Under the pieces are notes generated by a model, which was given only the letters and a program-made list of their open reading frames with translations, had not been told where the DNA came from and ran no database searches. Shown one piece after another: positions 1 to 12,460 of a stretch of 51,544 nt of DNA. The position numbers were made by a program, and so were the translations under genes. How positions within the stretch are numbered: position 1 is the first letter of the stretch; each line of letters begins with the position of its first letter. This DNA comes from an uncultured Chitinophagaceae bacterium (GTDB taxonomy: Bacteria > Bacteroidota > Bacteroidia > Chitinophagales > Chitinophagaceae): positions 1-51,544 of the forward strand of contig CALLZY010000032.1 in NCBI GenBank assembly GCA_937858715.1, written 5' to 3'.

Positions 1-28
1 ATTTGCAAATTTGCTAAAATCTTCACAA

Positions 29-622
29 ATGAAACAGTTCTGGGATCAACGATATGCAGAAAATGAAACGGTTTATGGTTTTGCACCCAATCAGTTCTTT
101 AAGCAGTTTATTGACGGCAGGAAGCCCAGCTCCATTTTATTACCTGCAGAAGGTGAAGGCCGTAATGCTATCTATGCCGCTTCAAAAGGCTGGCAGGTAG
201 ATGCTTTTGATTTTAGTGAAGTGGCAAGGGATAAAGCGTTAGGTGTTGCAAGAGGACAAAAACTTAAGATAGATTATGTTCTCAGGGATATGGCCGATTT
301 CAAGGCTGGCAAGCAGTATGATGCAGTTGGGCTGATTTATGTACACTTACCAGAAAAGGAGAGAAAGGCGTTTCATGCAGAAATATATAATTCAATAAAA
401 CCAGGAGGTCTGTTTGTATTAGAGGCATTTGCCAAGGAACAGTTTGGGTTAAACAGCGGTGGCCCGAGAGACCTGGCTATGTTATACGATGCACCTTCAC
501 TTTGCTCCGATTTTCCATTTATGAACATGATAACCTGTGAACAGAAGGAAATAATTCTTGATGAAGGTGATTATCATAAAGGAAAAGCCGCTGTCCTTCG
601 TATGATAGGTCAACGGCTTTAA
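29..622 (+). CDS. class I SAM-dependent methyltransferase (TehB/thiopurine-type)
   Basis: Small soluble methyltransferase of about 197 residues. The N-terminus (MKQFWDQRYAENETVYG) is typical of the TehB/thiopurine-methyltransferase-like group. The SAM-binding region follows as LLPAEGEGRNAIYAASKGW, a motif I loop (ExGxGRN), then the acidic VDAFDFSE and the late strand KPGGLFVLEAF. An upstream in-frame TTG at 11 exists, but the ATG at 29 fits the family start better. The substrate cannot be read from sequence; tellurite, thiols and small metabolites are all possible. It converges on the dps gene with a gap of 15 nt. The left edge of the window lies just upstream, so its promoter and operon partners are not visible. 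Confidence 0.8.
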   Translation: MKQFWDQRYAENETVYGFAPNQFFKQFIDGRKPSSILLPAEGEGRNAIYAASKGWQVDAFDFSEVARDKALGVARGQKLKIDYVLRDMADFKAGKQYDAVGLIYVHLPEKERKAFHAEIYNSIKPGGLFVLEAFAKEQFGLNSGGPRDLAMLYDAPSLCSDFPFMNMITCEQKEIILDEGDYHKGKAAVLRMIGQRL

Positions 623-637
623 AAAATAATAGCACTA

Positions 638-1111
638 CTATTTGCCCATAAAGGAAGAGTACATCCACACTAATTTTTCCTGCTGGCGTATGTAATCACT
701 CATCAGTGCATTTGTTCCTTCGTCGTCAGCATCGGCAGAGAGGGACAAAAGTTCTCTTTCTATTTTCAGCAGAATGCCAAATGATTCAAGTACAGATTGT
801 ACAGCAATCTTTCCATCGCTGATGTTTTTCTTTTCTTTAATGGCGGCCATTTTCAGGTAATCTGTGTAAGAATGACTCGGGGTGTATCCAAGTGTCAGGA
901 TTCTTTCAGCCACTTCATCAATTTTTACCTGAAGGTCTGTATATAACTCTTCAAACTTGAGGTGCAGCTCAAAGAATTTTTCACCCTTGATGTTCCAATG
1001 AAAGCCACGGGTGTTTATGTACATAAGCTGAAAGTTTGCTAACAGTAAATCTAATTTACCAGCCAGTTTTTTTGATTTAGCCTGATCAAGACCAATTTGA
1101 GATGTTTTCAT
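638..1111 (-). CDS. dps: Dps-family ferritin-like DNA-protection protein
   Basis: At 157 residues this has the normal Dps length. Dps proteins form 12-subunit cages that oxidise and store iron with peroxide and protect DNA. The inter-subunit ferroxidase ligands are in register with the E. coli protein: H38, H50 (12 apart, as H51/H63), E54 in place of Asp67, D65 and E69 (as D78/E82). They lie in FHWNIKGEKFFELH and the following helix KIDEVAERI. The gene is divergent from the sulfide:quinone oxidoreductase-like gene across 339 nt containing two Crp-type palindromes, so peroxide or sulfide stress control is plausible. No -7 element at the spacing used by the other sites was found on this strand. 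Confidence 0.88.
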   Translation of the reverse strand: MKTSQIGLDQAKSKKLAGKLDLLLANFQLMYINTRGFHWNIKGEKFFELHLKFEELYTDLQVKIDEVAERILTLGYTPSHSYTDYLKMAAIKEKKNISDGKIAVQSVLESFGILLKIERELLSLSADADDEGTNALMSDYIRQQEKLVWMYSSFMGK

Positions 1112-1280
1112 TTTATGTGAATTTTTGAAAAGTAAAATTATTTCTATTTCTGAATAGTGATACTGAAAATATCCGGTTTTTGATTTTACTGTTAATAACT
1201 GGTGAAATGTTTAAACACTTAAGAAGCATATTCAGAGGAATTTTACCCTGATTTTTTACTCCATAAACAATTATTAATAA

Positions 1281-1294
1281 GTGACATGTATCAC
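1281..1294. promoter_or_regulatory. Crp/Fnr-type palindrome in the dps / flavoprotein intergenic region
   Basis: GTGACATGTATCAC contains perfect GTGA and TCAC half-sites separated by 6 nt and is followed by ACA, as in the classical CRP consensus. It lies 157 nt before the flavoprotein start and 170 nt before dps. At 22 nt downstream on either strand no convincing TAnnTTTG element is present, so it is not in the class II position seen at the other sites. Its centre is 82 bp (about eight helical turns) from the second site at 1363-1376. The rest of the 339-nt gap holds no gene I can support. Confidence 0.6.
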
Positions 1295-1362
1295 ACAAGT
1301 TAAAATAGTTGGCCAGAAAAGCCCATTATCATTTCAGTACCTGACAGGAGTCATTTTTATCT

Positions 1363-1406
1363 GTGACAGAACTCGCAAACTTAGAGATGAACCGGGAGGA
1401 GTTTTG
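1363..1406 (+). promoter_or_regulatory. Crp/Fnr-type site plus -7 element for the flavoprotein operon
   Basis: GTGACAGAACTCGC at 1363-1376 matches GTGA-N6-TCAC with one mismatch. Exactly 22 nt later comes GAGTTTTG (1399-1406), which matches the Bacteroidota -7 element TAnnTTTG except at its first base. This places the palindrome centre near -41 of the expected transcript start, the class II activator position. The same spacing is seen upstream of the CstB-like gene and the TauE-like gene. The predicted 5' leader is about 40 nt. Confidence 0.55.
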
Positions 1407-1450
1407 TGCCGTAATACACAGTTAAACAATTTGCTAAATAAACAGTCATT

Positions 1451-2689
1451 ATGAAACATCTTGTAATTCTTGGTGCCGGTACCGCAGGTACAATGATGGC
1501 CAACCATCTTAAGAAGCACCTGAAAAGACCTGAATGGCGCATCAGTATAATTGATGAAAGAACAGAACATCACTATCAACCAGGTTATCTATTTCTTCCT
1601 TTCGATATTTACGATCCGGAAGATATTGTAAAAACAATTGAAGAGTTTATTCCTAAGAACGTTAACCTGATTCAGGCGAAAATTGATAAGATTGTTCCGG
1701 CAGAGAATAAAGTAATAATGACTAACGGAACAGTTGCCATCTATGATGTGTTGATCATTGCCACAGGTGCAAGAACTGCCCCGGAGGAAATTGAAGGAAT
1801 GAAAGGTGAAGAATGGATGAAGTCTGTTTTTGATTTTTATACTTTTAAAGGTTCTCTGGCATTAAGGGACAAATTGAAAAACTGGGAAGGTGGCAAATTG
1901 GTGGTGCATATTACAGAGATGCCGATTAAATGCCCGGTAGCTCCCCTTGAGTTTGCATTCCTGGCCGACTCATTCTTCAAGGACAAAAAAATGAGGGATA
2001 AGGTTGAGATTACTTATGTTACTCCGCTTAGTGGTGCCTTTACCAAGCCAAAAGCAACAGAAGCACTTGAGCATTTGCTTGAAGAAAAACACATAAAGAT
2101 TGAAAGCGACTTTGCCATAATGGAAGTGGATAATGAAACAAAGGAGATTGTTGATTATGGAGGAAGAAGGGTTCCTTTCGACATTCTGGTGACAGTTCCT
2201 ACAAATAAAGGAGATGAAGTGATAGAAAGGTCTGGTTTGGGTGATGACCTGAATTTTGTGCCGACACATAAAGCGACGCTGCAGTCAAAGGCACATGAGA
2301 ACATTTTTGTAATCGGTGATGCCAGTAATATACCTGCATCAAAAGCCGGTTCAGTTGCCCACTTTGAAGCTGAAATTCTTACAGAAAATATACTACGGTA
2401 TGTGAAAGGCGAGCCCTTGAAAGAAGAGTTCGATGGCCACGCCAACTGCTTTATCGAAACCGGTGGTGGTAAGGCTCTGCTCATTGACTTTAACTATACA
2501 CATGAGCCGGTTGAAGGAACTTTCCCGTTCCCGGGTGTTGGCCCCCTTCGCCTGATGAAAGAAAGCCGGATGAACCACCTTGGCAAACTTGCATTCAAAT
2601 GGATTTACTGGCATATGCTGCTGAAAGGCACACATATTCCTTTTGTATCAGCAACAATGTCTGAGTCAGGAAAAAAATATGATAAGTAA
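1451..2689 (+). CDS. sulfide:quinone oxidoreductase-like FAD flavoprotein
   Basis: A 412-residue pyridine nucleotide-disulfide-type flavoprotein. The N-terminal FAD loop is LVILGAGTAGTMMANHL (GxGxxG at residues 8-13). The second FAD segment is FVIGDASNIPASKAGSVAHF (about 286-305). Two cysteines sit where redox cysteines are expected in sulfide:quinone oxidoreductases: C161 (MPIKCPVAP) and C333 (ANCFIETGG). The C-terminus (about 375-400) is amphipathic and probably binds the membrane. Known SQRs oxidise sulfide to sulfane sulfur and reduce quinone at the inner membrane. The gene starts a three-gene operon with TusE/DsrC-like and DsrE-like sulfur carriers, which supports this role over other NDH-2-like functions. 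The exact SQR type cannot be fixed by eye. Confidence 0.82.
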   Translation: MKHLVILGAGTAGTMMANHLKKHLKRPEWRISIIDERTEHHYQPGYLFLPFDIYDPEDIVKTIEEFIPKNVNLIQAKIDKIVPAENKVIMTNGTVAIYDVLIIATGARTAPEEIEGMKGEEWMKSVFDFYTFKGSLALRDKLKNWEGGKLVVHITEMPIKCPVAPLEFAFLADSFFKDKKMRDKVEITYVTPLSGAFTKPKATEALEHLLEEKHIKIESDFAIMEVDNETKEIVDYGGRRVPFDILVTVPTNKGDEVIERSGLGDDLNFVPTHKATLQSKAHENIFVIGDASNIPASKAGSVAHFEAEILTENILRYVKGEPLKEEFDGHANCFIETGGGKALLIDFNYTHEPVEGTFPFPGVGPLRLMKESRMNHLGKLAFKWIYWHMLLKGTHIPFVSATMSESGKKYDK

Positions 2690-2725
2690 TAAAACAACAA
2701 TTCTTAATTATATAAAATCAACAAC

Positions 2726-3034
2726 ATGGAAAGAACAATAGCTGGCAAAACAATTGCCGTAAACGACGAAGGTTACATGACAGATTTCAAGCAGTGGGAT
2801 AAATCAATAGGCGAGGCCCTTGCTGCTGAAAATGAACTTAGCCTGACACCCAGGCACTGGGAAGTACTTGAGTATATTCAAAAAGAGTATGTGAATGAAG
2901 TGCCGCTGAGCATACGCAAAATAGGCAAAAGCGGAGTGGTGGACATTAAGGAGTTTTATGTGCTTTTCCCCAAAGCCCCTTTGAAAACAGCAACTAAAAT
3001 TGCCGGCATCCCTAAACCCGCAAGCTGTATTTAA
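2726..3034 (+). CDS. TusE/DsrC-family sulfur carrier protein
   Basis: A 102-residue DsrC/TusE-family protein. The family C-terminus is clear: LFPKAPLKTATKIAG and then IPKPASCI, with the penultimate cysteine C101 (CysA) on the flexible arm. In sulfate/sulfur-metabolism DsrC a second cysteine (CysB) lies 11 residues earlier in a QAC motif. Here that position is threonine (TAT), so the protein has the single-cysteine, TusE-like arrangement. It also lacks the extra residues that A. vinosum DsrC has before the LFP motif. It probably accepts and passes persulfide sulfur rather than forming the DsrC trisulfide. It lies 36 nt after the flavoprotein gene and 20 nt before the DsrE-like gene. Confidence 0.85.
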   Translation: MERTIAGKTIAVNDEGYMTDFKQWDKSIGEALAAENELSLTPRHWEVLEYIQKEYVNEVPLSIRKIGKSGVVDIKEFYVLFPKAPLKTATKIAGIPKPASCI

Positions 3035-3054
3035 TAACCAATAAAAACTTTGTT

Positions 3055-3537
3055 ATGAGCGAAAATAAAGGTGAAATAAAAAAGATGATGATCATCTTGT
3101 CAAAAGCAACATTGGAAAATGTTTATGCAGCTTTTGTACTGGCCAACGGAGCAAGGATGGAAGGTATTGATGCTGAAATATTCTTCACTTTCTTTGGCCT
3201 GGAGGCTGTTCACAAAAAGAAAATGAACGGGTTGCATATTGCAACTGTTGGCAATCCCGCTATGCACATGCCTACCATGATTGGTGGTCTGCCCGGCATG
3301 GAAGCCTTTGCAACAAAAATGATGAAGAAAGAAATGGAAAAACTTGATATGCCGGAAGTGCCGGAGTTTCTCGAAATCCTTTCTGACTCAGGTGTAAAAA
3401 TGTGGGCTTGTAAACTTGCCTTTGATATGTTTCATTATAAAAAAGAGGATTTGTTTGAAGGAGTGAACGATATAATAACTGTTGGTGATTTTTATAAGAA
3501 GAGTGAAGGCGAAGGCGTTCACATGTTGTTTATTTAG
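3055..3537 (+). CDS. DsrE/DsrF-like (DsrE2-type) sulfur-transfer protein
   Basis: A 160-residue soluble alpha/beta protein. It starts with a DsrE-fold strand-helix (KKMMIILSKATLENVYAAFVLANGARMEGIDAEIFFTF, given here in part), has a Met-rich middle (residues about 75-100) and a conserved cysteine in KMWACKLAFDMF (about residue 122). This matches the DsrE2/peroxiredoxin-like group, in which that cysteine carries persulfide and often works with TusA, rhodanese or DsrC partners. It is the last gene of the flavoprotein operon and is followed by a strong hairpin terminator. Partner specificity is inferred from context. Confidence 0.8.
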   Translation: MSENKGEIKKMMIILSKATLENVYAAFVLANGARMEGIDAEIFFTFFGLEAVHKKKMNGLHIATVGNPAMHMPTMIGGLPGMEAFATKMMKKEMEKLDMPEVPEFLEILSDSGVKMWACKLAFDMFHYKKEDLFEGVNDIITVGDFYKKSEGEGVHMLFI

Positions 3538-3572
3538 CAGAAATTCCGGGGAGTTCATCCCCGGGAAATTGA

Positions 3573-3604
3573 AGCCGGGGATGTTTTTACATTCCCGGCT
3601 TTTT
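3573..3604 (+). terminator. bidirectional rho-independent terminator
   Basis: A 12-bp stem (AGCCGGGGATGT / ACATTCCCGGCT, one G-T position) with a TTTT loop is followed by T5. A second, shorter GC hairpin precedes it at about 3544-3567. It sits between the converging DsrE-like gene and the YeeE-like gene, and its T-tract overlaps the stop codon of the latter. Confidence 0.85.
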
Positions 3605-4133
3605 AATGGGGCAGTTTGTCTCTTAGACGGCCGTAAGTCCATGTCCCGGCTATTGCACTCAGAAGTGTCACAATTGCAACGGTGGCACCTGTACCAATTT
3701 GAGCAAAAATTGGTCCGGGACAGGCACCGGTAAGGGCCCAGCCAAAACCAAATAACAGACCGCCTATGATATTTCCTTTGTTGAGTTTGCGGGTTACAAA
3801 TTCAATCGGCTCGCCGTAAATAGTTTTTATGTTGAACCGTTTAATTATCCAGACAGAAATAATACCAACAATTACCGCTGAACCAATTACGCCGAACATA
3901 TGAAAACTCTGCAAGCGAAACATTTCCTGTATCCTGAACCAGGATATTACTTCCGCTTTTACCAGGATGATACCAAATAAAATTCCAGCAATGGCATATT
4001 TAAAATTATACCACCAAGGATGATTGAGTTCTGACTCGTTAAAACAAACGGCATCTAAAGACCTTACCTCAAAGTCGGCATTTTGTGTCAGGAATTCGTG
4101 GTGTTTTTTTTCTTCAACGGTATTTGGAGTCAT
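3603..4133 (-). CDS. YeeE/YedE-type sulfur transporter, C-terminal half protein (DUF6691-like)
   Basis: A 176-residue membrane protein with a roughly 40-residue cytosolic N-terminus and about four transmembrane helices. It carries the YeeE signature GWALTGACPGPIFAQIGTGA, whose cysteine is the conserved sulfur-relay residue of this family. YeeE/TsuA imports thiosulfate in E. coli and other bacteria as one polypeptide. Bacteroidota commonly split it into two half proteins, as here. The partner half is the next upstream gene, with 4 nt between them. The neighbouring sulfide-oxidation genes suggest thiosulfate or another sulfur compound as substrate; the direction of transport is unknown. Confidence 0.83.
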   Translation of the reverse strand: MTPNTVEEKKHHEFLTQNADFEVRSLDAVCFNESELNHPWWYNFKYAIAGILFGIILVKAEVISWFRIQEMFRLQSFHMFGVIGSAVIVGIISVWIIKRFNIKTIYGEPIEFVTRKLNKGNIIGGLLFGFGWALTGACPGPIFAQIGTGATVAIVTLLSAIAGTWTYGRLRDKLPH

Positions 4134-4137
4134 AGTA

Positions 4138-4701
4138 TTACAGGTTTATGATAATGGGAATAAGCAGATTTGAAACAATAAAGCCTCCCGCCATAAAGCA
4201 AACAGTGGCAATTAATGAAGGAAGCTGGAGGTTGGAGAGTCCCATGATGGAGTGACCGCTGGTACAGCCTCCTGCATATCTGGTGCCGAATCCAACAAGA
4301 AAACCCCCTGTAACAATTAGGACTAAACCTTTCAATGAAAAAAGTGAGGGCCAGTTGAAAATTTCTGTGGGTATCAGTTGTGTGTAATCAGTGATACCAT
4401 AGGAAGAAAGTTCTTTTACCAGTTTGGGGTTCAGTTGTATTGAAGGTGAAGTTGTTAACAATTGTGCCGCAATACTGCCACCGATCAAAATACCACCAAC
4501 CAGAAACAGGTTCCAGGTTTCTTTTTTCCAATCATATTTAAAAAAGGAAATACGTCCTGGAAAACAGGCAGCACATATATGCCGGAGCGATGATGATATT
4601 CCAAAGGATTTGTTCCCGATGATTAACAGCACAGGAACCATCAGTCCGATCAGCGGCCCGGCAATATACCAGGGCCAGGGTTTCATTATCCACTCAGGCA
4701 T
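4138..4701 (-). CDS. YeeE/YedE-type sulfur transporter, N-terminal half protein
   Basis: A 187-residue integral membrane protein with about five helices. It contains the other YeeE/YedE signature, RYAGGCTSGHSIMGLSNLQ, with the conserved cysteine near residue 142. A second cysteine pair occurs in HICAACFPGRISFF (about residues 41-55), also common in this half. It precedes and is co-transcribed with the C-terminal half. Together they should form the complete pseudo-symmetric channel. No GTGA-N6-TCAC site was found upstream, so unlike its neighbours it is not obviously part of the Crp/Fnr set. Confidence 0.83.
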   Translation of the reverse strand: MPEWIMKPWPWYIAGPLIGLMVPVLLIIGNKSFGISSSLRHICAACFPGRISFFKYDWKKETWNLFLVGGILIGGSIAAQLLTTSPSIQLNPKLVKELSSYGITDYTQLIPTEIFNWPSLFSLKGLVLIVTGGFLVGFGTRYAGGCTSGHSIMGLSNLQLPSLIATVCFMAGGFIVSNLLIPIIINL

Positions 4702-4808
4702 AGTCTATAATTTTTATGGACTGTAAAAATATCAGGAACCGATTTAATAACCAACTTTAGAATAAATTAATCTAGTTTCGTTATAGTTGACTTTCTAAGC
4801 ATAAAAAG

Positions 4809-4827
4809 GCCCGCTTACGTTGCGGGC
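4809..4827. terminator. bidirectional hairpin terminator
   Basis: GCCCGC and GCGGGC form a 6-bp GC stem around a 7-nt loop (TTACGTT), with A5 before and T3CT3 after. It is placed to end the DUF2202 gene on the minus strand, whose stop lies 26 nt away. Confidence 0.7.
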
Positions 4828-4852
4828 TTTCTTTCTTATTTCTTCTTAAATT

Positions 4853-5533
4853 CTAATGTTTGCAATTTTTTCCACATCCATTACCGCACCCTTTGCCATT
4901 TCCCGGGCCGTTGCCGGGTTTATTACCTTCATGTCCTTCGTGGCTGTTTTCAGAATTTATGATTGCATCATATGCTTCCTGGCTCAGGATTTCGGGTTTG
5001 TAGTCAATTCCCTGTCTTTTCAGATTACGGGTAAAAGCCCGGAGGTGATTTCCAGAGGCCATTTTCAAATACTTATAAGTGGAAATTATTTCTTCATTTT
5101 CTGTTTCGCTTATTCTTTTTTCAAGATCGGCAATATCAAGCTCCTCAATTTTGGCACCTGCTTTAAGGGCATCTGTCAATGAGTTGCTGCCACTGGCAGC
5201 CAGGTCTTTATAATAATTGCTGAATGCGGGGTTAGAGAATACGCCTCTCTTATCATTATTGTTTTCTACAGGGTCTGTAAGTTTATACTTTGTGATTAGC
5301 TCTTTTACCCTATCCATGTGATGTTGTTCACTTTGACGTATGTTGCCAAAGGGATTAACTTCCCATTTTTCATACATAGCATTATAAACATCTCTGGCCA
5401 GTTTTTCTTCCTCTCTCATGTAGAGAATTGCTTCTTTTTCCTTTTGGTTCAAGGATACAATTTCTTGTGCAGAAATGTTGAGGCTGCTGATTGCAGCAAG
5501 TATTACGGTAAGGAATCGTTTCATGTTTTTCAT
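4853..5533 (-). CDS. secreted DUF2202 (ferritin-like) protein with Cys/His/Gly-rich tail
   Basis: The ATG at 5533 (or 5524) gives the signal peptide MKRFLTVILAAISSLNISAQ; the longer reading to 5599 has no signal-like start and is probably not used. The mature part matches DUF2202, a four-helix ferritin-like domain: YMREEEKLARDVYNAMYEKW, SEQHHMDRVKELI and later GNHLRAFTRNLKRQG keep the acidic/His residues expected of a metal site. The last roughly 30 residues are rich in Gly, Asn, His and Cys (GKGCGNGCGKNCKH), which suggests an added metal-binding tail. The function of DUF2202 is unknown. It sits between two sulfur-related operons on the same strand. Confidence 0.8.
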   Translation of the reverse strand: MKNMKRFLTVILAAISSLNISAQEIVSLNQKEKEAILYMREEEKLARDVYNAMYEKWEVNPFGNIRQSEQHHMDRVKELITKYKLTDPVENNNDKRGVFSNPAFSNYYKDLAASGSNSLTDALKAGAKIEELDIADLEKRISETENEEIISTYKYLKMASGNHLRAFTRNLKRQGIDYKPEILSQEAYDAIINSENSHEGHEGNKPGNGPGNGKGCGNGCGKNCKH

Positions 5534-5639
5534 TTGTCGGGTGATTAACAATAGTTTAATAGAATAAGACGCAGATTTAAAAACTATCCTATGGGACACA
5601 ATAAATTACTGCAAACTTCTTCTTAAGGGGGATAAAAAC

Positions 5640-5668
5640 AAGCGGCGTGACGTTAGACCACACCGCTT
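5640..5668 (-). terminator. terminator of the rhodanese operon
   Basis: On the minus strand AAGCGGTGTG and CACGCCGCTT form a 10-bp stem with one G-T wobble, followed by GTTTTTATC. On the plus strand the wobble becomes a C-A mismatch, so the structure favours the minus-strand transcript that ends with the 103-residue rhodanese. Confidence 0.75.
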
Positions 5669-5692
5669 TAATTTTTTGCAGAACCTGTAATT

Positions 5693-6004
5693 CTATCTGA
5701 TTTTACTTTGAAGGCTTGTCCATGGCCCGCCGTTATATACCTCAATTCCGGCAGATTTGAGTATGTTTTTTGCCATGCCGCTTCTGCCTCCGCTAAGACA
5801 AACAGTAATAACTGGTTTATTCAGTTTTTTAATGTCTGCGACTTTACTACGGATACTCTCAACAGGATAATTTTTTGAGCCTTTGATATTGCCACTCCTG
5901 AACTCCATTGGTGAACGTACGTCAATTATTACGGCGCCGTTGTTTACCAGTTCTTTGAAATCGACAGTTTTAATGCCAAATATTTTTTTTATGAACTCAA
6001 TCAT
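5693..6004 (-). CDS. single-domain rhodanese-like sulfurtransferase
   Basis: 103 residues with one complete rhodanese domain: an N-terminal helix, VIIDVRSPMEFRSGNIKGSKN, and the active-site loop TVCLSGGRSGMA with catalytic cysteine near residue 69. Such proteins move sulfane sulfur between persulfides and acceptors. It is the last gene of a three-gene operon with a second rhodanese (11-nt gap) and the CstB-like enzyme. The hydrophobic start (MIEFIKKIFG) looks like an amphipathic helix rather than a signal peptide. Confidence 0.88.
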   Translation of the reverse strand: MIEFIKKIFGIKTVDFKELVNNGAVIIDVRSPMEFRSGNIKGSKNYPVESIRSKVADIKKLNKPVITVCLSGGRSGMAKNILKSAGIEVYNGGPWTSLQSKIR

Positions 6005-6015
6005 CTTTTTTCGTT

Positions 6016-6297
6016 TTAGTTAACTAAGAATTGCATATCACCAATACCACCGCCATTATAAACATTTGATATGCCGTTTTGGGCAAGAATACTGGCTGCC
6101 ATACTGCTTCTGGCACCACTACGACAATAAACAACCACTGCTGTATTGAAAGCCTTAAACTCGTCTGTTTTATATGGGATTTGGTCAACCGGAATATTTT
6201 TTGCGCCGGCTATGTGCCCCATTTCATACTCCATGGGTGTACGTACGTCGACGATTACTGTGGTGGGGTTATTTACGATTTCTTTTAAACTGCTCAT
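6016..6297 (-). CDS. single-domain rhodanese-like sulfurtransferase
   Basis: 93 residues, cytosolic, with no signal peptide. VIVDVRTPMEYEMGHIAGAKNIPVD is the usual CH2A-like region (shown as overlapping parts), and VVVYCRSGARSSMAAS is the active-site loop with the CRSGxR motif of GlpE/PspE-type rhodaneses; the cysteine is near residue 58. It lies 38 nt downstream of the CstB-like gene. Two tandem rhodaneses plus the rhodanese domain of the fusion protein give four rhodanese folds in one operon, one of which lacks a catalytic cysteine. Confidence 0.9.
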   Translation of the reverse strand: MSSLKEIVNNPTTVIVDVRTPMEYEMGHIAGAKNIPVDQIPYKTDEFKAFNTAVVVYCRSGARSSMAASILAQNGISNVYNGGGIGDMQFLVN

Positions 6298-6335
6298 TTC
6301 TTTTTAAGATTGATTTAGTGATGAATTTGATTTAG

Positions 6336-7754
6336 TTATAATAAAGTTGTTGGACAAACATATTCTGTCAGGCTGAACTTGCCTGATTCCTTTATTGCCT
6401 TAAAACCAGTTTTAACATCAATAAGGTTGTCGTAGCCTCTTGCCCTGAGGATGGAAACAAATATCATGGAACGATAACCTCCTGCGCAATGAACATAGTA
6501 TGTTTTATTCTTGTCAATTTTTGCCATACTGTCATTAATAAAATCAAGCGGGGCATTTTCGGCATCAACAATATGTTCGCTCAGATATTCACTATTCTTC
6601 CGAACATCAAGAATATTGACTGATTCCGTATTCAGTTTGTCAGCCAGTTCATCGGGACTTACAGAACGAATCTGATCTGTTTCTTTTCCAGCTTCTTTCC
6701 ACGCATTAAAGCCGCCTTTCAGGAAACCAATGGTGAAATCATAACCTACACGGGCAAGTCTTGTTATGACCTCTTCTTCACGGCCATCGTCTGTAACAAG
6801 CAGAATTTCTTGTTTTATGTCAGGTATTAAAGCGCCAACCCATGGGGCAAATTGTCCGTTTATGCCAATATTAATTGAGTTGGGGACAAATCCCTGTGCA
6901 AAAACTTGCGCATCCCTTGTATCAAGGATGATTGCACCGGTTTCGTTGGCAGCAGTTTCAAATGCATCGGGGTTTAAAGCATGTTGTCCACGTTGCAGCA
7001 CTTTATCAATACTGTCATATCCCTGGATGTTCATCATTACATTTAAAGGGAAGTAGGAGGGTGGTGCCACCAATCCGGTTGTTACTTCCTTTATGAAATC
7101 TTCTTTCGTCATATCTGGCCGCAGTGCATAGTTTGCCTTTTTCTGATTGCCAAGTGTATCCGTTGTTTCCTTACTCATGTTTTTTCCGCAGGCACTGCCG
7201 GCGCCGTGTGCAGGATAAACAATAATATCATCGGGCAGGGGCATTATCTTATTGCGAAGCGAGTCAAATAAATAACCAGCCAGCATATCCTGTGTTAACT
7301 CTGCTTTTACTTTTTGTGCAAGGTCTGGCCGGCCCACATCGCCGATAAATAATGTGTCGCCCGAGAACAAGCCAATTTCTTTACCTGCTTCATCTTTTAA
7401 AAGATAACAGGTGCTTTCCATTGTATGTCCCGGTGTATGAATGACTTTTATTGTTGCTTTTCCAACAGTAAACTCCTGACCATCTTCGGCTACTATTGCG
7501 TCAAATGCTGGTGCTGCATTCGGCCCGTAAATAATTGGGGCGCCGGTTTTTTCAGAAAGATCAATATGGCCGCTTACAAAGTCTGCATGAAAATGTGTTT
7601 CAAAAACGTACTTTATTTTTGCATTGTTACGTTCTGCTTTTTGAATGTAAGGCAGAACTTCACGCAATGGATCAATGACAACCGCCTCTCCATCGCTTTC
7701 GATGTAGTAGGCTCCTTGTGCCAAACATCCGGTGTAAATCTGTTCTACTTTCAT
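6336..7754 (-). CDS. CstB-like persulfide dioxygenase-rhodanese fusion
   Basis: At 472 residues this has the three-domain layout of CstB. The N-terminal metallo-beta-lactamase/ETHE1 domain (about 1-235) has THFHADFVSGH (H54, H56, D58, H63), TPGH (H110), SGDTLF (D133) and PAHGAGSACG (H183, C189). Next is a pseudo-rhodanese (about 250-360) whose active-site position reads LLVTDDGREEE without cysteine. Last is an active rhodanese (about 365-472) with YYVHCAGGYRSM (C423). Family members oxidise low-molecular-weight thiol persulfides (CoA or bacillithiol persulfide) with O2 and yield thiosulfate. Bacillithiol synthase bshA lies in the same window. First gene of its operon, driven by the Crp-type promoter at 7774-7817. 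Confidence 0.88.
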   Translation of the reverse strand: MKVEQIYTGCLAQGAYYIESDGEAVVIDPLREVLPYIQKAERNNAKIKYVFETHFHADFVSGHIDLSEKTGAPIIYGPNAAPAFDAIVAEDGQEFTVGKATIKVIHTPGHTMESTCYLLKDEAGKEIGLFSGDTLFIGDVGRPDLAQKVKAELTQDMLAGYLFDSLRNKIMPLPDDIIVYPAHGAGSACGKNMSKETTDTLGNQKKANYALRPDMTKEDFIKEVTTGLVAPPSYFPLNVMMNIQGYDSIDKVLQRGQHALNPDAFETAANETGAIILDTRDAQVFAQGFVPNSINIGINGQFAPWVGALIPDIKQEILLVTDDGREEEVITRLARVGYDFTIGFLKGGFNAWKEAGKETDQIRSVSPDELADKLNTESVNILDVRKNSEYLSEHIVDAENAPLDFINDSMAKIDKNKTYYVHCAGGYRSMIFVSILRARGYDNLIDVKTGFKAIKESGKFSLTEYVCPTTLL

Positions 7755-7773
7755 TGGTCTTTGTTTGTGGTGA

Positions 7774-7817
7774 CAAAATTCATATTAAGTCAAATATCAT
7801 ACAGTGACATCAATCAC
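7774..7817 (-). promoter_or_regulatory. Crp/Fnr-type site plus -7 element for the CstB-like operon
   Basis: GTGACATCAATCAC at 7804-7817 has perfect GTGA/TCAC half-sites. Reading on the minus strand, exactly 22 nt follow and then GAATTTTG (7781 down to 7774), a TAnnTTTG element with one mismatch. The start codon at 7754 lies 19 nt further. The spacing is identical to that before the TauE-like gene and the flavoprotein gene. Confidence 0.7.
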
Positions 7818-7824
7818 AGTATTG

Positions 7825-8628
7825 TTATGGGCGAAGGAATATTTCTTTTGTGATTATATATATTCCCATGGTAAGGATGAACCAGCCAAAGCCTTTTTTT
7901 AAAGCTACCGGGCTGATTTTTTCAGACAGTTTTGCTCCGATAAAAATTCCGGCAACTGCGAGTGTAGTAAAGATGGTTAGCAACCGCCAGTCGAAATGAA
8001 ACTGTTTCAGGCTAAATAAAAATCCAAATAATGAATTGATAGCTATAATCATCAGTGATGTACCGACTGCCTTTTTCATATCAAGGCCGAGGAATAACAC
8101 CAGTGTTGGAATGATTAGAAAACCACCACCGGCACCAAGTAATCCTGTTATTACCCCAATGGCAAGGCCGAAAAACATAAGAGGAAATATCCGCTCATGC
8201 CGAGGACGGGGTAACCTGTCGTTTTTCTCATCTTCTTTATTAGCAATCATTGAGTAGGATGCGAGCAGCATCAGCACCGCAAACACAACCATCAGCAGCA
8301 TATTTTTGGAAACAGATAAGCTGGCTGATAGGTTTATAGTGTCTGGAATTTCCGGTAATAAATAATGCCGTGTAATAAATATTGAGAATACTGAAGGAAA
8401 ACCAAATTCGGTTACAGCTTTAAAATCAAGCATGCCTTTAGCATTTGCCCTGAGGCCACCTACAAGACTAGTGGTGCCAACAATGAATAATGAACTGGTG
8501 GTAGCTAATAGCGGATTTACATGAAGAAGATAAACAAGGACTGGAACGGTCAATATTGACCCGCCGCTGCCTACAAGTCCTAAAGAAATGCCAATAAAAA
8601 TGGCTGCTATGTAGCCAAATATCTCCAT
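7825..8628 (-). CDS. TauE/SafE-family sulfite/sulfur-compound exporter
   Basis: 267-residue inner-membrane protein with about eight transmembrane helices in two repeats. Each repeat carries the family glycine motif: LGLVGSGGSILTVPVLVYLL near the N-terminus and ITGLLGAGGGFLIIPTLVLF near residue 165. TauE/SafE proteins export sulfite, sulfoacetate and related anions. Its placement next to a thiosulfate/sulfite-producing persulfide oxidation operon, and its own copy of the same Crp-type promoter, suggest it removes sulfite or thiosulfate from the cell. The predicted leader from its -7 element is very short (11 nt to the ATG). Confidence 0.87.
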   Translation of the reverse strand: MEIFGYIAAIFIGISLGLVGSGGSILTVPVLVYLLHVNPLLATTSSLFIVGTTSLVGGLRANAKGMLDFKAVTEFGFPSVFSIFITRHYLLPEIPDTINLSASLSVSKNMLLMVVFAVLMLLASYSMIANKEDEKNDRLPRPRHERIFPLMFFGLAIGVITGLLGAGGGFLIIPTLVLFLGLDMKKAVGTSLMIIAINSLFGFLFSLKQFHFDWRLLTIFTTLAVAGIFIGAKLSEKISPVALKKGFGWFILTMGIYIITKEIFLRP

Positions 8629-8639
8629 GTAATTTTTTG

Positions 8640-8683
8640 CAAGATTAACAGAAACCGGCTTCAGCTTTCGTGACAGTAATCAC
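8640..8683 (-). promoter_or_regulatory. Crp/Fnr-type site plus -7 element for the TauE-like gene
   Basis: GTGACAGTAATCAC at 8670-8683 has perfect half-sites. On the minus strand 22 nt follow, then TAATCTTG (8647 down to 8640), matching TAnnTTTG at all but one base. The palindrome centre would lie near -41 of the transcript. It lies between the stop of the regulator gene and the TauE-like gene, giving the exporter its own promoter. Confidence 0.72.
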
Positions 8684-8694
8684 AGCATCCTGAG

Positions 8695-9312
8695 TTAAAA
8701 AAGTTCAATCATGTTTCTGTGAAGTTTCAGCAGGTTACGTTGCTCCATCTTCTTCAGCAGCCTGGAAATTACCTCCCGTGAGCTATTGAGATCGTCAGCT
8801 ATTTGCTGATGAGAAATCTCCAGTTTCTTTTTCCCTGTCTTATCTGAGTAGCGTTTCAGGAAAAATTCAAGTCTTTCGTCCATGTTCCGGAAAGCGATAT
8901 TGTCAACAACCTCCAGTATTTCATCAAACCTTGCCCTGTATGTCTGAATAACAAACTGGTACCATGTTTTGTATTGGTTCATCATGTCATCCATCAGGTG
9001 AACGGGTATCATCAGCACTTCTGTATCTTCTTCGGCGACTGCCATCAGTTCGCTGGTGTGGGACTGGATGGCACATATCATTGATACGGCACATGCCTGT
9101 CCGGGTTCCAGATAATATATCAGGAATTCGCCACCTTCCTGGTTTTCACGGTATATTTTTATCCGGCCTTCTAAAATCAATATAGTTGATTTTATATACT
9201 GGCCTGTACGCATAATGATATCGCCTGCATAAAAGGTTCGTTGAACGGCTTCTTTTTCTATCAGTTCAACAAGTTGTGGTTCAAATTGGGGAAATTTTTC
9301 TTTCCAGTTCAT
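8695..9312 (-). CDS. Crp/Fnr-family transcriptional regulator
   Basis: 205 residues: a cyclic-nucleotide-binding-fold domain (about 15-115), dimer helix (about 115-145) and winged HTH (about 150-205). The recognition helix reads NSSREVISRLLKKME. Its R179, E180 and R184 match E. coli CRP R180/E181/R185, which contact the GTGA half-site. This agrees with the GTGA-N6-TCAC sites nearby. The N-terminal [4Fe-4S] cysteines of FNR are absent. Instead C74 and C80 lie in GQACAVSMICAI, where a cAMP protein has its phosphate-binding cassette, so cAMP binding is doubtful and a thiol or persulfide sensor is possible. A weak TTG/TAACTTTA promoter precedes it. Confidence 0.9.
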   Translation of the reverse strand: MNWKEKFPQFEPQLVELIEKEAVQRTFYAGDIIMRTGQYIKSTILILEGRIKIYRENQEGGEFLIYYLEPGQACAVSMICAIQSHTSELMAVAEEDTEVLMIPVHLMDDMMNQYKTWYQFVIQTYRARFDEILEVVDNIAFRNMDERLEFFLKRYSDKTGKKKLEISHQQIADDLNSSREVISRLLKKMEQRNLLKLHRNMIELF

Positions 9313-9369
9313 ACGGTAAAGTTAGGGGTATGTAGTATATGCAGTGTCAATGGTGGCTGAGTTTGATTT

Positions 9370-10650
9370 TTATTCAAGAACTTTTTCCATTCTCATACTT
9401 CGGCTGCCCTTGACAAGTATATGTGTATTATGAAAATTTTGTTTTTCAAACCATTCTTTAGCCTCTGTTGAGTTATTAAGAGAAAAGAATGGATGGTTGC
9501 ACTTTAGAAAATCGCCACCTACAAGTACGACTGAAGTCCAGTTGTATTGGCCAATCAGCTGTATGATGGCTTTATGTTCATCAAGACTTTCCTCTCCTAA
9601 TTCGGCCATTCCTCCTAACATCAGTACTTTATTATCAGCTTTCAGGTTGGCAAAGTTTTCAATGGCCAGTTTCATACTGCTTGGGTTTGCGTTATATGCA
9701 TCCAGTATTATTTTATTACTTCCTTTTTCGATCATCTGCGACCGGCTGTTGGACGGCATATAGTTTTCAATAGCCGATATTATCTTCTTATCAGGCACAT
9801 TAAAATGTTTTCCAACTGTAACGGCAAGCAGTATATTAGGAAGATTATAATCACCCACCAGATGGCTTTTAATATTTCCGGTTTCAGAGCCTTTTGTAAT
9901 ACTCACTTCAAGAAAGGGATTACTTTCTATGACGGTACCTTCTATTAAGGCATTTTTTGTGCCGTAAGTAATTACTGTTGGAATGCCCTTGCTCATTTCC
10001 CGCAGGTAATCATAATCCCACATAACAAAAGCAGTACCGTTGTTATACCGCAGGTAGTCATAAAGTTCGCCTTTACCTTTTCTTACTCCTTCCACACCGT
10101 CAAATCCTTCCAGATGGGCCTTTCCGCAATTGGTAATGACACCATGAGTGGGCTGGGTATATTCACAGTAGCCTGCAATTTCTTTTTGGTGATTGGCCCC
10201 CATTTCAATTACGGCCATTTCTGCATCGGGTTCTATTTTGAGAATTGTTAGCGGAATACCGATATGATTGTTGAGGTTACCTTCTGTAGTATATGTTTTA
10301 AATGTGGTGGAAAGAACGGTGTGTACCAGTTCTTTGGTGGTGGTTTTTCCGTTGCTGCCGGTAATGGCAATGAAAGGAATATTCTTAAATTGCTCTCTGT
10401 GATGTTTTGCTAATTGCTGCAGGGTGATCAGTACATCTTCTACCAGTATTATCTTTTCTCCTGTGTGAAACTTCTTTTCATCTACAACAGCATAAGCGGC
10501 ACCATTTTCTATTGCCTGCCGGGCAAAACTGTTTCCGTTGAAATTATCGCCTTTTAATGCAAAAAAAATATCGCCTTGTTTTAGTTTCCGGGTATCTGTC
10601 TGAACGGATGGAAACTGCCTATAGATTTTATACAGTTCTTCAATTTGCAT
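9370..10650 (-). CDS. murF: UDP-N-acetylmuramoyl-tripeptide--D-alanyl-D-alanine ligase
   Basis: 426 residues with the three Mur-ligase domains. The N-terminal domain binds UDP-MurNAc (DTRKLKQGDIFFALKGDNF). The central ATPase has the P-loop AITGSNGKTTTKELV and the region MAVIEMGANHQKEI typical of MurF. The C-terminal domain holds LDAYNANPSSMKLAIENF and LGGMAELGEESLDEHK. It adds D-Ala-D-Ala to the UDP-MurNAc-tripeptide in cytoplasmic peptidoglycan synthesis. It lies downstream of the gldJ-type gene on the same strand, with a terminator between them. The murF-gldJ-porU-porV order is, from memory, also seen in Flavobacterium johnsoniae. Confidence 0.95.
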   Translation of the reverse strand: MQIEELYKIYRQFPSVQTDTRKLKQGDIFFALKGDNFNGNSFARQAIENGAAYAVVDEKKFHTGEKIILVEDVLITLQQLAKHHREQFKNIPFIAITGSNGKTTTKELVHTVLSTTFKTYTTEGNLNNHIGIPLTILKIEPDAEMAVIEMGANHQKEIAGYCEYTQPTHGVITNCGKAHLEGFDGVEGVRKGKGELYDYLRYNNGTAFVMWDYDYLREMSKGIPTVITYGTKNALIEGTVIESNPFLEVSITKGSETGNIKSHLVGDYNLPNILLAVTVGKHFNVPDKKIISAIENYMPSNSRSQMIEKGSNKIILDAYNANPSSMKLAIENFANLKADNKVLMLGGMAELGEESLDEHKAIIQLIGQYNWTSVVLVGGDFLKCNHPFFSLNNSTEAKEWFEKQNFHNTHILVKGSRSMRMEKVLE

Positions 10651-10695
10651 GTTGCAAAAATAGCTGTAAACAATTTTTACGCTGCAAATAAAAAA

Positions 10696-10712
10696 CCCTC
10701 CGAAACGGAGGG
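10696..10712. terminator. bidirectional terminator between gldJ and murF
   Basis: CCCTCCG-AAA-CGGAGGG is a perfect 7-bp stem with a 3-nt loop, flanked by A-tracts on the left and CT5 on the right. It lies 24 nt after the stop of the gldJ-type gene (minus strand), so it separates that gene from murF. Confidence 0.82.
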
Positions 10713-10735
10713 CTTTTTGTTATTTTCTGAAGGGA

Positions 10736-12298
10736 TTATCTCTTTTGCCTTCTGGTTTTAAAATGCTGGCCAGTTTTGCGGCCATTACCTTCAGGGCTGC
10801 CCATGCGGTTCATAGCGCAACGGAAACCAAGGGTGCTAAGAGCCTGGTCTTCCTCAAGGAAGCGGCGTGAGCCTGGCGTTAACCAATAAGCTCTGTCGTT
10901 CCAGCTGCCACCTTTAAATACTTTTGATCTTTCAGGATCAATAAGAGTTGTTTGGCCATAGCCGTATTTAATATCTGTAGAATCTTCTCCATCAAGGTAA
11001 GCAATTACATTACCCCTTTGGTAGTTTCTGCGGTTTTTGCTTTCCTCATCAGTTACGTCAACCATTTTCACACGGCCAACGCTGTCTTTTTCATAACGTT
11101 GAGAAGGATCCATAGTTGTCGAGTCGGCAACATAGAGCTTCTGGTACTTGTTACCGCGGAAAGGAGCCGGCTGGTCATCAAAATCAAGTGCTGAAAGCGG
11201 ACGATAGGTATCTTCCACCCACTCACTTACGTTACCAGCCATATTATAAAGGCCAAATCCATTAGGGAAGAAAGACTGAACTTCTGAAGTATAAAAGGCA
11301 CGGTCATTCAAACCACCTGCCACACCGGCGTTATCGCCTGAGCCTCTTTTAAAGTTTGCGAGGAATGTTCCCTGCCAGCTTCCGTGACGGGTATCCCGAA
11401 GGCCATTGACATTTTGCGCCCATGGATACATTTGTTTATTCATGGCCAATTCCTCACCTCTCTTACCTTCTTTAGCAGAAGGGCGGGGATTCTGATAAAT
11501 CAGGCCGTAGGCTGCATATTCCCATTCAGCCTCAAAAGGTAAACGATAATCTGGTAATAGAACACCTGATTCCAGTGTAGCAACAGTTTGCTTAGGCTGA
11601 CCTTTTGGTGTTTTCATTTTACCCGGAGGCGCTGTGTACAAGCCAAAAAGGTAAGATTTTGTGGTAAAGTTATTATCTCCCTGTTGTGCGCCGGGTTTCA
11701 GGTTATTCTTATTAACATAACCTTTGTCTATTAGAATTTTTTCATTAACCCTGTCGGTTCTCCAAAGACAGAAATCTTTTGCCTGCTGCCAGGAAACACC
11801 TACTACGGGATATTCGTTAAAGCCAGGGTGACGGAAATAATATTCAACCATTGGTTCGTTATAGCTCAACTCACTTCTCCAGCAAAGGGTATCGGGTAAG
11901 GCTTTTTCAAGAATTTTTGCATTGGCAGGATCTGAAGGATCAAAAACCCTTGTTAACCAGTGCAGGTATTCACGGTAGTGAACGTTAGCAACCTCTGTAC
12001 GGTCAATATAGAAAGAAGGAACTGATACACGGCGGGGGATGTTGTTCCAGTCGCCCATTACATCTTCTTCAGTTTGACCCATAGTGAAGGTACCACCCTG
12101 AACAAATACAAGACCGGGACCCAAGCCTTGCTCTTTGGCTTTTGAAACCTGGTAACCGCCCATGTTTTTGTCGTTGTAGTTCCAGCCTGTAACATCAGAT
12201 TTGCTGGATTTTTTCTTAAACAGGCCACCATTTTTACATGAGGCTAAAAGCACCAGAAAGGATACCAGAATTGTTAAGTTTCTCATTGTTTTTTGCAT
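10736..12298 (-). CDS. gldJ: gliding-motility lipoprotein GldJ-type (FGE/SUMF1 fold)
   Basis: The start at 12298 or 12286 gives MRNLTILVSFLVLLASC, a lipoprotein signal with lipobox LLASC; the longer upstream reading is not signal-like. The mature part is about 500 residues of formylglycine-generating-enzyme-like (SUMF1) fold: FVQGGTFTMGQTEED, PSFYIDRTEVANVHYREYL, YPVVGVSWQQAKDFCLWR and the late FKGGSWNDRAYWL...RCAMNRMG. GldJ and GldK are paralogous non-catalytic FGE-like lipoproteins of gliding and type IX secretion. The WNYNDKNMGGYQV start and the murF/porU neighbours favour GldJ. It is divergent from porU. Confidence 0.82.
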   Translation of the reverse strand: MQKTMRNLTILVSFLVLLASCKNGGLFKKKSSKSDVTGWNYNDKNMGGYQVSKAKEQGLGPGLVFVQGGTFTMGQTEEDVMGDWNNIPRRVSVPSFYIDRTEVANVHYREYLHWLTRVFDPSDPANAKILEKALPDTLCWRSELSYNEPMVEYYFRHPGFNEYPVVGVSWQQAKDFCLWRTDRVNEKILIDKGYVNKNNLKPGAQQGDNNFTTKSYLFGLYTAPPGKMKTPKGQPKQTVATLESGVLLPDYRLPFEAEWEYAAYGLIYQNPRPSAKEGKRGEELAMNKQMYPWAQNVNGLRDTRHGSWQGTFLANFKRGSGDNAGVAGGLNDRAFYTSEVQSFFPNGFGLYNMAGNVSEWVEDTYRPLSALDFDDQPAPFRGNKYQKLYVADSTTMDPSQRYEKDSVGRVKMVDVTDEESKNRRNYQRGNVIAYLDGEDSTDIKYGYGQTTLIDPERSKVFKGGSWNDRAYWLTPGSRRFLEEDQALSTLGFRCAMNRMGSPEGNGRKTGQHFKTRRQKR

Positions 12299-12460
12299 AA
12301 ACCTATGAATTGGAATATTTTTAACGCTGGCGGGTAATAAATATTGCATATAAAATGCGGATTTCCGCCAGAATTGCGAATATATGTACTTTGAAAAGAA
12401 AGCATAACGGAGTTTTACGTTTTTTTGAGTGTATTTTCCCAAAAAACCACATTGGTTTCT

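What the first reader, a model, noticed from the sequence alone, without database searches (positions are those of the whole stretch)
1281..8683. A local Crp/Fnr regulon with a fixed 22-nt promoter geometry across sulfide genes
Four GTGA-N6-TCAC-type palindromes occur in the region: 1281-1294, 1363-1376 (one mismatch), 7804-7817 and 8670-8683. Three of them are followed after exactly 22 nt by a -7-like element (GAGTTTTG, GAATTTTG, TAATCTTG) directly in front of the SQR-like operon, the CstB-like operon and the TauE-like exporter. The palindrome centres then fall near -41, the class II activation position. No other such pair was noticed in the window.
Basis: partly seen in the sequence, partly recalled or inferred. 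Interest (0 to 1): 0.78.

Follow-up and report, generated by a model that had tools for sequence, protein, structure and literature searches.

The report
Sulfide-gene switch with fixed promoter layout
In front of a bacterium's sulfide-handling genes, a protein-binding site sits at one exact distance from the promoter, and many relatives keep the same layout, so this looks like a shared on-switch for dealing with toxic sulfide.

Summary
Palindromes at 1363, 7804 and 8670 stand exactly 22 nt before an nAnnTTTG-like box, in front of the SQR, MBL-rhodanese and TauE genes; 0 of 400 shuffles give three. The decisive evidence is comparative. In 61 family loci, 73 palindromes have the box at gap 22 and no other gap (0-59) has more than 5; in 60 mostly Flavobacterium loci, 104 against at most 8. 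With F. psychrophilum boxes at -12 to -5 (PMC9723704, passage), the palindromes centre at -41.5: class II. The adjacent Crp/Fnr protein is the likely binder: where its recognition residue 180 is Val instead of Glu, the site is usually GTAAC-N4-GTTAC, at the same gap (20 of 24 Val loci, 0 of 42 Glu loci; one independent switch). MBL-rhodanese homologues in 20 genomes without a match to it show no such layout (0 of 21 loci). The regulon is not only local: a TolC-type efflux gene elsewhere has the layout. Palindrome 1281 is a conserved auxiliary site of SQR. The signal, perhaps persulfide at Cys74/Cys80, is inferred. No binding or start-site data exist.

The parts
1281..1294 (+). distal palindrome GTGACATGTATCAC, upstream site of the SQR promoter (predicted centre about -123.5), 82 bp from the proximal site
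   Evidence: exact palindrome in 6 of 6 SQR promoters compared; 82-bp spacing to a proximal site in window, L067, L068, L193 (4 of 6)
1341..1354 (+). middle weak palindrome CTGACAGGAGTCAT, starting 22 bp before the proximal one
   Evidence: CTGA-N3-GA-N-TCAT in 6 of 6 promoters
1363..1376 (+). proximal class II site GTGACAGAACTCGC of the SQR operon (one mismatch)
   Evidence: GTGACNNAACTCGC in window, L067, L068, L193; weaker in L189, nearly lost in L071
1399..1406 (+). -7 box GAGTTTTG (predicted -12 to -5), 22 nt after the site; predicted start about 1411
   Evidence: box position from PMC9723704 (passage)
1451..2689 (+). SQR (type III sulfide:quinone reductase), first gene of the operon
   Evidence: NF049943, 643 bits, cut-off 525
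2726..3034 (+). DsrC/TusE-like sulfur carrier
   Evidence: PF04358, TIGR03342
3055..3537 (+). DsrE2-like protein
   Evidence: PF13686 (NCBIfam DsrE2 model 104.2 bits, under its cut-off of 210)
3603..4133 (-). YeeE/YedE-like transporter half 1 (no composite upstream in the window)
   Evidence: PF04143
4138..4701 (-). YeeE/YedE-like transporter half 2 (composite upstream in 9 of 35 family loci, not in the window)
5693..6004 (-). single-domain rhodanese
   Evidence: rhodanese models, all under their cut-offs
6016..6297 (-). single-domain rhodanese
   Evidence: rhodanese models, all under their cut-offs
6336..7754 (-). MBL-rhodanese-rhodanese protein (CstB-like persulfide dioxygenase/sulfurtransferase)
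   Evidence: PF00753 and two PF00581 stretches; 3tp9 and 3r2u
7774..7781 (-). -7 box GAATTTTG of the MBL-rhodanese promoter; predicted start about 7769
7804..7817 (-). class II site GTGATTGATGTCAC
7825..8628 (-). TauE/SafE exporter
   Evidence: PF01925, 155.9 bits
8640..8647 (-). -7 box TAATCTTG of the TauE promoter; predicted start about 8635
8670..8683 (-). class II site GTGATTACTGTCAC
8695..9312 (-). Crp/Fnr regulator; helix S178-R-E-V-I-S-R184; its only two Cys are Cys74 and Cys80

Best explanation
The Crp/Fnr protein encoded at 8695-9312 is a class II transcription activator of sulfide and sulfane-sulfur genes. Its dimer binds GT(G/A)AY-N4-RT(C/T)AC centred at -41.5, stands in for the -33 contact and recruits sigma-A RNA polymerase to an nAnnTTTG -7 box exactly 22 nt further on. 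It drives SQR-DsrC-DsrE2, the MBL-rhodanese/rhodanese genes and TauE; elsewhere in the genome it probably also drives a TolC-type efflux operon. At SQR the proximal site is weak and is helped by two upstream palindromes. SQR makes persulfide, the MBL-rhodanese protein oxidises it and moves sulfur, and TauE exports sulfite or a similar product (pathway roles from established knowledge of these families). Shown by computation: sites, gap, conservation, linkage, and a site difference that goes with residue 180. Inferred: binding, activation rather than repression, start sites, and the signal, most likely persulfide/polysulfide reacting at Cys74/Cys80 in the effector domain (about 0.5 on its own; the stated confidence is for the regulator, site and geometry).
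For: Gap-22 peak in 61 family loci: 40 exact + 33 one-mismatch palindromes, every other gap 5 or fewer in sum, reversed-pattern control 0 to 3. Same peak in 60 mostly Flavobacterium loci (3 + 101) and in 20 named Chitinophagaceae-type loci (12 + 12; four of these 20 are the same DNA as family loci). Palindrome with up to 1 mismatch within 300 nt upstream of TauE in 29 of 29 and of MBL-rhodanese in 34 of 40 family loci; with a box of at least 4 of 5 at gap 22 within 250 nt, 23 of 29 and 31 of 40, against MurF 0 of 23 and YeeE1 0 of 35, which are mostly mid-operon genes and so only a mild control. Spacer columns are nearly uninformative in the family set. MBL-rhodanese homologues in 20 of the 62 family genomes without a match to the regulator: 0 of 21 loci with the layout. 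Residue 180 Glu/Val goes with G:C or A:T at the third half-site base. R180, E181, R185 are listed as base contacts of E. coli CRP (PMC12531629, passage). A paralogue with a similar helix is present at 59% identity or more in only 5 of 38 genomes searched.
Against: No binding, expression or start-site data. Whole-genome counts in this one genome are not enriched. 6 of 29 TauE and 9 of 40 MBL-rhodanese family promoters fail the strict layout. The Glu/Val split on the tree is only 2 changes, 1 independent pair, so its sign test has no power; 4 of 24 Val loci break the rule. Flavobacterium regulators keep Glu180 yet use hybrid sites with one GTAAC half, so the residue alone does not fix the code. 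Of 12 distant Glu-type loci, only 3 strict composites were found. Activation versus repression cannot be read from sequence. The sensing role of Cys74/Cys80 rests on conservation; the C-x2-(S/T)-x2-C pattern was not found in 9 of 70 distant locus entries, and the model is poor at 76-83 (pLDDT under 50).
Confidence: 0.85

Rival explanations
1. The sites are real class II sites but another Crp/Fnr protein of the cell binds them, for instance the 214-aa paralogue at C100:29100 with the helix AREVVTR.
For: That paralogue has a similar helix, and a GTGAC-N4-GTCAC palindrome with a 3-of-5 element at gap 22 lies just past its gene, before a YgaP-like gene. A third Crp-type protein (C31, 355 aa, with a receiver-like N-terminus) also exists.
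Against: The C100 paralogue is found at 59% identity or more in 5 of 38 genomes searched that carry the window-type regulator. The window-type gene lies beside target genes in most family loci, and the site goes with its residue 180. The C31 protein has a different helix, ATESLIR.
Confidence: 0.08
2. The protein is a repressor: bound at -41.5 it blocks polymerase and is released by sulfide.
For: Known sulfide sensors CstR and SqrR/BigR are repressors (recalled; BigR is called a repressor in the start of the abstract of PMC5823870).
Against: A rigid 22-nt gap, equal to the E. coli class II arrangement (recalled), is typical of activation; a repressor tolerates varied positions. The first base of the box is often not T (73% in the family set, 46% in the Flavobacterium set), as expected of weak, activator-needing promoters.
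Confidence: 0.1
3. The regulator answers oxygen, NO or a nucleotide, and sulfide genes are only one part of its regulon. (This concerns the signal and does not exclude the class II reading.)
For: Regulon candidates include efflux, thioredoxin and peroxiredoxin genes. Crp/Fnr proteins often sense such signals (recalled).
Against: The window protein has only two Cys, so the four-Cys FNR cluster cannot form. 193 of 232 composites precede MBL-rhodanese, TauE, rhodanese, YeeE2 or SQR homologues, though the loci were chosen next to the regulator, which biases this.
Confidence: 0.3
4. Chance clustering of short motifs.
For: Palindromes alone are not enriched genome-wide.
Against:: a single-gap peak in two separate sets, and 0 of 400 shuffles.
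Confidence: 0.01

Closest known systems
E. coli CRP at class II promoters (site centred at -41.5)
   Same: GTGA-N6-TCAC site, same recognition residues, same 22-nt distance from site to -12 (E. coli geometry recalled)
   Different: Bacteroidota -7 box nAnnTTTG instead of TATAAT; effector domain carries Cys74/Cys80; targets are mostly sulfur genes
CAP E181V altered-specificity mutants (Ebright and co-workers, recalled, not looked up)
   Same: Glu to Val at the same position moves preference at the third half-site base from G:C to A:T
   Different: here a natural split between regulator lineages
CstR, SqrR/BigR, FisR sulfide/persulfide regulators
   Same: control SQR and CstB/Blh-type genes (recalled)
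   Different: CsoR, ArsR and sigma-54-activator families (recalled); none is Crp/Fnr
PDB 3dv8, Crp/Fnr family protein of Eubacterium rectale
   Same: best solved relative by sequence (8.7e-30) and first fold match by E-value; shares C-x5-C
   Different: 26% identity and a poor superposition in the fold match (TM 0.55, rmsd 13.2); titled a putative regulator
Staphylococcal CstB-type MBL-rhodanese (3r2u; the CstB name is recalled)
   Same: matches over almost the whole length, 5e-63
   Different: there under a CsoR-family repressor (recalled)

Membership tests
Crp/Fnr family | cNMP-binding-like domain plus Crp-type HTH | tested here: met
   PF00027 49.2 bits, PF13545 37.3, PF00325 24.7, all over cut-off
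E. coli-type CRP (cAMP) | equivalog score | tested here: not met
   NF008732 46.9 bits, cut-off 266
E. coli-type CRP (cAMP) | cAMP-binding pocket residues | tested here: inconclusive
   compared only by eye with recalled CRP residues: the stretch reads GQACAVSMIC
FNR ([4Fe-4S]) | four cluster cysteines | tested here: not met
   the protein has only Cys74 and Cys80; NF008365 36.5 bits, cut-off 228
NtcA | equivalog score | tested here: not met
   TIGR03697 45 bits, cut-off 244.95
Class II Crp/Fnr-dependent promoter | site centred at -41.5 as counted from the -7 box | tested here: met
   with the box position from PMC9723704
Class II Crp/Fnr-dependent promoter | mapped start site and regulator-dependent transcription | not testable with these tools
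   needs an experiment
Thiol-based persulfide sensor | conserved cysteine pair | tested here: met
   Cys74 61 of 61, Cys80 60 of 61; both invariant in A2, 41 rows; but pattern not found in 9 of 70 distant locus entries
Thiol-based persulfide sensor | persulfide chemistry that changes DNA binding | not testable with these tools
   needs an experiment
CstR / SqrR-BigR / FisR | CsoR, ArsR or sigma-54-activator domains | tested here: not met
   one search shows only Crp/Fnr domains in the regulator

The most novel reading that the evidence does not exclude
Bacteroidota carry a so far unnamed Crp/Fnr class of direct persulfide/polysulfide sensors (C-x5-C in the effector domain) that switch on sulfide detoxification from rigid -41.5 promoters, and two lineages of it have naturally split their DNA code by the Glu/Val change known (recalled) from altered-specificity CAP mutants.
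Probability: 0.45. Interest if true: 0.75.

Novelty: new variant of a known kind. Interest (0 to 1): 0.6.

Why it matters
It gives Bacteroidota a candidate sulfide-response regulator with a readable promoter code. The code (site, 22 nt, nAnnTTTG) lets the regulon be predicted in Flavobacterium and Chitinophagaceae-type genomes. The Glu and Val lineages are a natural test of CRP-family DNA recognition. The cysteine pair makes persulfide sensing by a Crp/Fnr protein directly testable.

Tried and rejected
Chance clustering: rejected. A whole-genome test of the pair in this one genome: 102 oriented palindromes gave 2 boxes at gap 22 and 0 to 2 at other gaps, so no power. Palindrome 1281 as a class II site for Dps or SQR: no box at gap 22 on either strand. 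The C100 paralogue as main binder: unlikely. Structure as a guide to Cys74/Cys80: residues 76-83 have pLDDT under 50, so no geometry is claimed. (alignment) used wrong L067 coordinates and is discarded; one search replaces it. One search used a pattern one base short; its 0 matches mean nothing.

Literature: searches. Searches found no paper; the term probably could not match 'Crp/Fnr' as usually printed. None of the titles and abstract starts listed describes a Crp/Fnr regulator of SQR, CstB-like or TauE genes in Bacteroidota. Many subscription papers are not held, so this is weak evidence of absence. Of two papers opened I saw passages (PMC9723704, with its outline; PMC12531629, one passage); the rest only as listings.
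Full report
WHAT WAS CHECKED. A scan of the whole window for palindromes of up to one mismatch (or GTRAY-N4-RTYAC) followed at gaps 18-26 by the box finds just these three pairs. In window 1-10000, 3 pairs against a shuffle mean of 0.085; 0 of 400 shuffles reach 3. Palindromes alone are unremarkable (20 against 13.1 expected, 4 of 100 shuffles as high; 37 exact in 4.42 Mb, reversed control 48; 27 and 29 on the two strands against 25 and 26).

GENES. SQR type III (NF049943, 643 bits over a cut-off of 525), DsrC, DsrE2-like, two YeeE/YedE halves, DUF2202, two single rhodaneses, MBL-rhodanese-rhodanese, TauE and the Crp/Fnr regulator. The MBL-rhodanese protein matches PDB 3tp9 and 3r2u over almost its whole length; 'CstB-like' fits, the CstB name for 3r2u being recalled.

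CONSERVATION. The regulator was sought in 195 family genomes: 133 have a match at 1e-15, the weaker of them probably other Crp/Fnr proteins. I fetched up to 20 kb around 60 matches of 48% identity or more, not all such matches. TauE, MBL-rhodanese, rhodanese or YeeE genes lie beside it in most. In these 60 plus window 1-13000, the box .A..TTTG follows a palindrome at gap 22 in 40 of 176 exact and 33 of 567 one-mismatch oriented sites; all other gaps hold at most 2 and 4 respectively, and the reversed control (480 sites) at most 3. Upstream palindromes of up to one mismatch: TauE 29 of 29, MBL-rhodanese 34 of 40, SQR 10 of 12 (SQR loosely: some hits are only SQR-like and one upstream stretch was overlong). 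Strict layout: TauE 23 of 29, MBL-rhodanese 31 of 40, YeeE2 9 of 35, Rhd1 9 of 30, Rhd2 3 of 13, regulator itself 1 of 61, YeeE1 0 of 35, MurF 0 of 23. In the family set the site and box carry much information and the spacer little; that set was chosen by gap and box, so only the spacer's emptiness is informative there.

BEYOND THE FAMILY. Four of the 20 are the same DNA as family loci. The Flavobacterium-type set has 3 exact and 101 one-mismatch sites at gap 22, other gaps at most 8; related species count many times. Their sites are hybrid, one GTGAC-type and one GTAAC-type half: 48 G/T, 40 A/C, 3 G/C distinct sites, and the order goes with the gene: TauE 46 of 46 G/T, MBL-rhodanese 38 of 39 A/C. 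Of the 80 loci, TauE has the layout in 58 of 67 and MBL-rhodanese in 55 of 59.

WHICH PROTEIN BINDS. (1) Linkage, above. (2) Of the 62 family genomes without a match to the regulator I took the 20 listed; 19 have MBL-rhodanese homologues, 21 loci: none has the layout, one has a one-mismatch palindrome without a box. Caveats: most are 50-60% paralogues (L163 at 71% is the nearest), and two loci (L168, L183) lack a usable upstream stretch. (3) Recognition helix: S178, R179, E180, V181, R184 in 61 of 61; E. coli CRP contacts bases with R180, E181, R185 (PMC12531629, one passage). (4) Code difference: distant regulators with Val at this place have GTAAC-N4-GTTAC at gap 22 before MBL-rhodanese, TauE and YeeE2. 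With a pattern open at the third base, distinct sites left/right: Glu type, Chitinophagaceae-type 52 G/C, 13 A/C, 6 G/T, 1 C/T; Glu type, Flavobacterium as above; Glu type, distant, 3 G/C in 12 loci; Val type, 55 locus entries that overlap in part, 20 A/T, 3 G/C, 2 A/A, 2 A/C, 1 G/A, 1 T/T. Gaps 20, 21, 23 and 24 are nearly empty. For a tree I took 93 regulators (31 of 61 family loci, 16 of 60 Flavobacterium-type, 14 distant Glu, 32 Val): A/T-type majority in 20 of 24 Val and 0 of 42 Glu loci that have a site; exceptions L304, L352 (a tie), L353, L362. The tree needs 2 changes of Glu/Val and gives 1 independent pair, so this is agreement with a structural expectation, not statistical proof. 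That CAP Glu181 to Val does the same in the laboratory is recalled. (5) A paralogue with a similar helix is found at 59% identity or more in 5 of 38 genomes, the window's own included.

POSITION. In F. psychrophilum the sigma-A consensus TAnnTTTG occupies -12 to -5 (PMC9723704, passages and outline seen). A 22-nt gap then puts the 14-bp site at -48 to -35, centre -41.5. Predicted starts are near 1411, 7769 and 8635; leaders of about 40, 15 and 7 nt are inference.

SQR PROMOTER. Six SQR promoters align (window, L067, L068, L071, L189, L193). The distal exact palindrome is in all six; CTGA-N3-GA-N-TCAT in the middle is in all six; the proximal site is degenerate but mostly kept (GTGACNNAACTCGC in four, weaker in L189, nearly lost in L071). 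Distal-proximal spacing is 82 bp in window, L067, L068 and L193. This explains palindrome 1281.

REST OF THE REGULON. In this genome, boxes of 5 of 5 at gap 22 behind 102 oriented palindromes: MBL-rhodanese and a TolC-family gene (PF02321) followed by MFP- and RND-like genes; 4 of 5: TauE, a FadL-like gene, an ArsR gene ahead of a rhodanese-like gene and a peroxiredoxin (both of these lack the A of the box), and two without clear meaning (operon roles in L046 and L144 read by eye). TolC-type genes with the same promoter also occur in L107, L231, L241, L256 and L266 (by eye). Of 232 distinct composites in the loci around the regulators plus seven own-genome loci, 82 precede MBL-rhodanese, 75 TauE, 14 Rhd1, 10 YeeE2, 6 SQR, 6 Rhd2 (193 together), 1 Crp, 1 MTase, 34 other genes (thioredoxin, metallophosphatase, YgaP-like, DUF983, OsmC, TetR and others), and 3 no ORF. 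Names from low-identity matches are loose, and the loci were chosen beside the regulator.

SIGNAL. The protein has only two cysteines; Cys74 is in 61 of 61 and Cys80 in 60 of 61 orthologues, both invariant in A2. 3dv8 has the same C-x5-C. Among distant entries the C-x2-(S/T)-x2-C pattern is missing in 9 of 70. The model is fair overall (pLDDT 82.7, pTM 0.58) but poor at 76-83. Persulfide sensing is the most likely reading given the targets; I put it near 0.5.

VERDICT. Observation confirmed; interpretation supported with two amendments (not only local; 1281 is an auxiliary SQR site). A known kind of regulator and promoter class in a new setting with a likely new signal.

Noticed in passing
window 1341-1354: A third, weak palindrome conserved in 6 of 6 SQR promoters compared, starting 22 bp (about two helical turns) before the proximal site.
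   Followed up: partly
L046 0-4078: TolC/MFP/RND-like genes with the same promoter plus a second palindrome 46 bp upstream, beside a LysR/OxyR-like gene and a catalase-peroxidase-like gene (named by eye).
   Followed up: partly
L162 about 1070-1724 (G000:C100): Second Crp/Fnr paralogue (AREVVTR helix) with a GTGAC-N4-GTCAC palindrome just past its gene, before a YgaP-like membrane gene.
   Followed up: partly
L144 544-3035: ArsR gene with a near-composite promoter, ahead of rhodanese-, permease- and thiol-protein-like genes (by eye).
   Followed up: no
L049 4337-4490: Two palindromes 140 bp apart between divergent gene groups of lipoprotein-like products; no box at gap 22.
   Followed up: no
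window 1451-2689: SQR scores best with an NCBIfam model for the selenoprotein subtype of type III SQR, yet its frame has no in-frame stop.
   Followed up: no
Flavobacterium-type loci L202-L266: Sites are hybrid although the regulator keeps Glu180, and the order of the halves goes with the gene: TauE 46 of 46 G/T, MBL-rhodanese 38 of 39 A/C.
   Followed up: partly
L362 7954: Val-type regulator with a GTGAC-N4-GTCAC site before MBL-rhodanese, an exception to the code.
   Followed up: no
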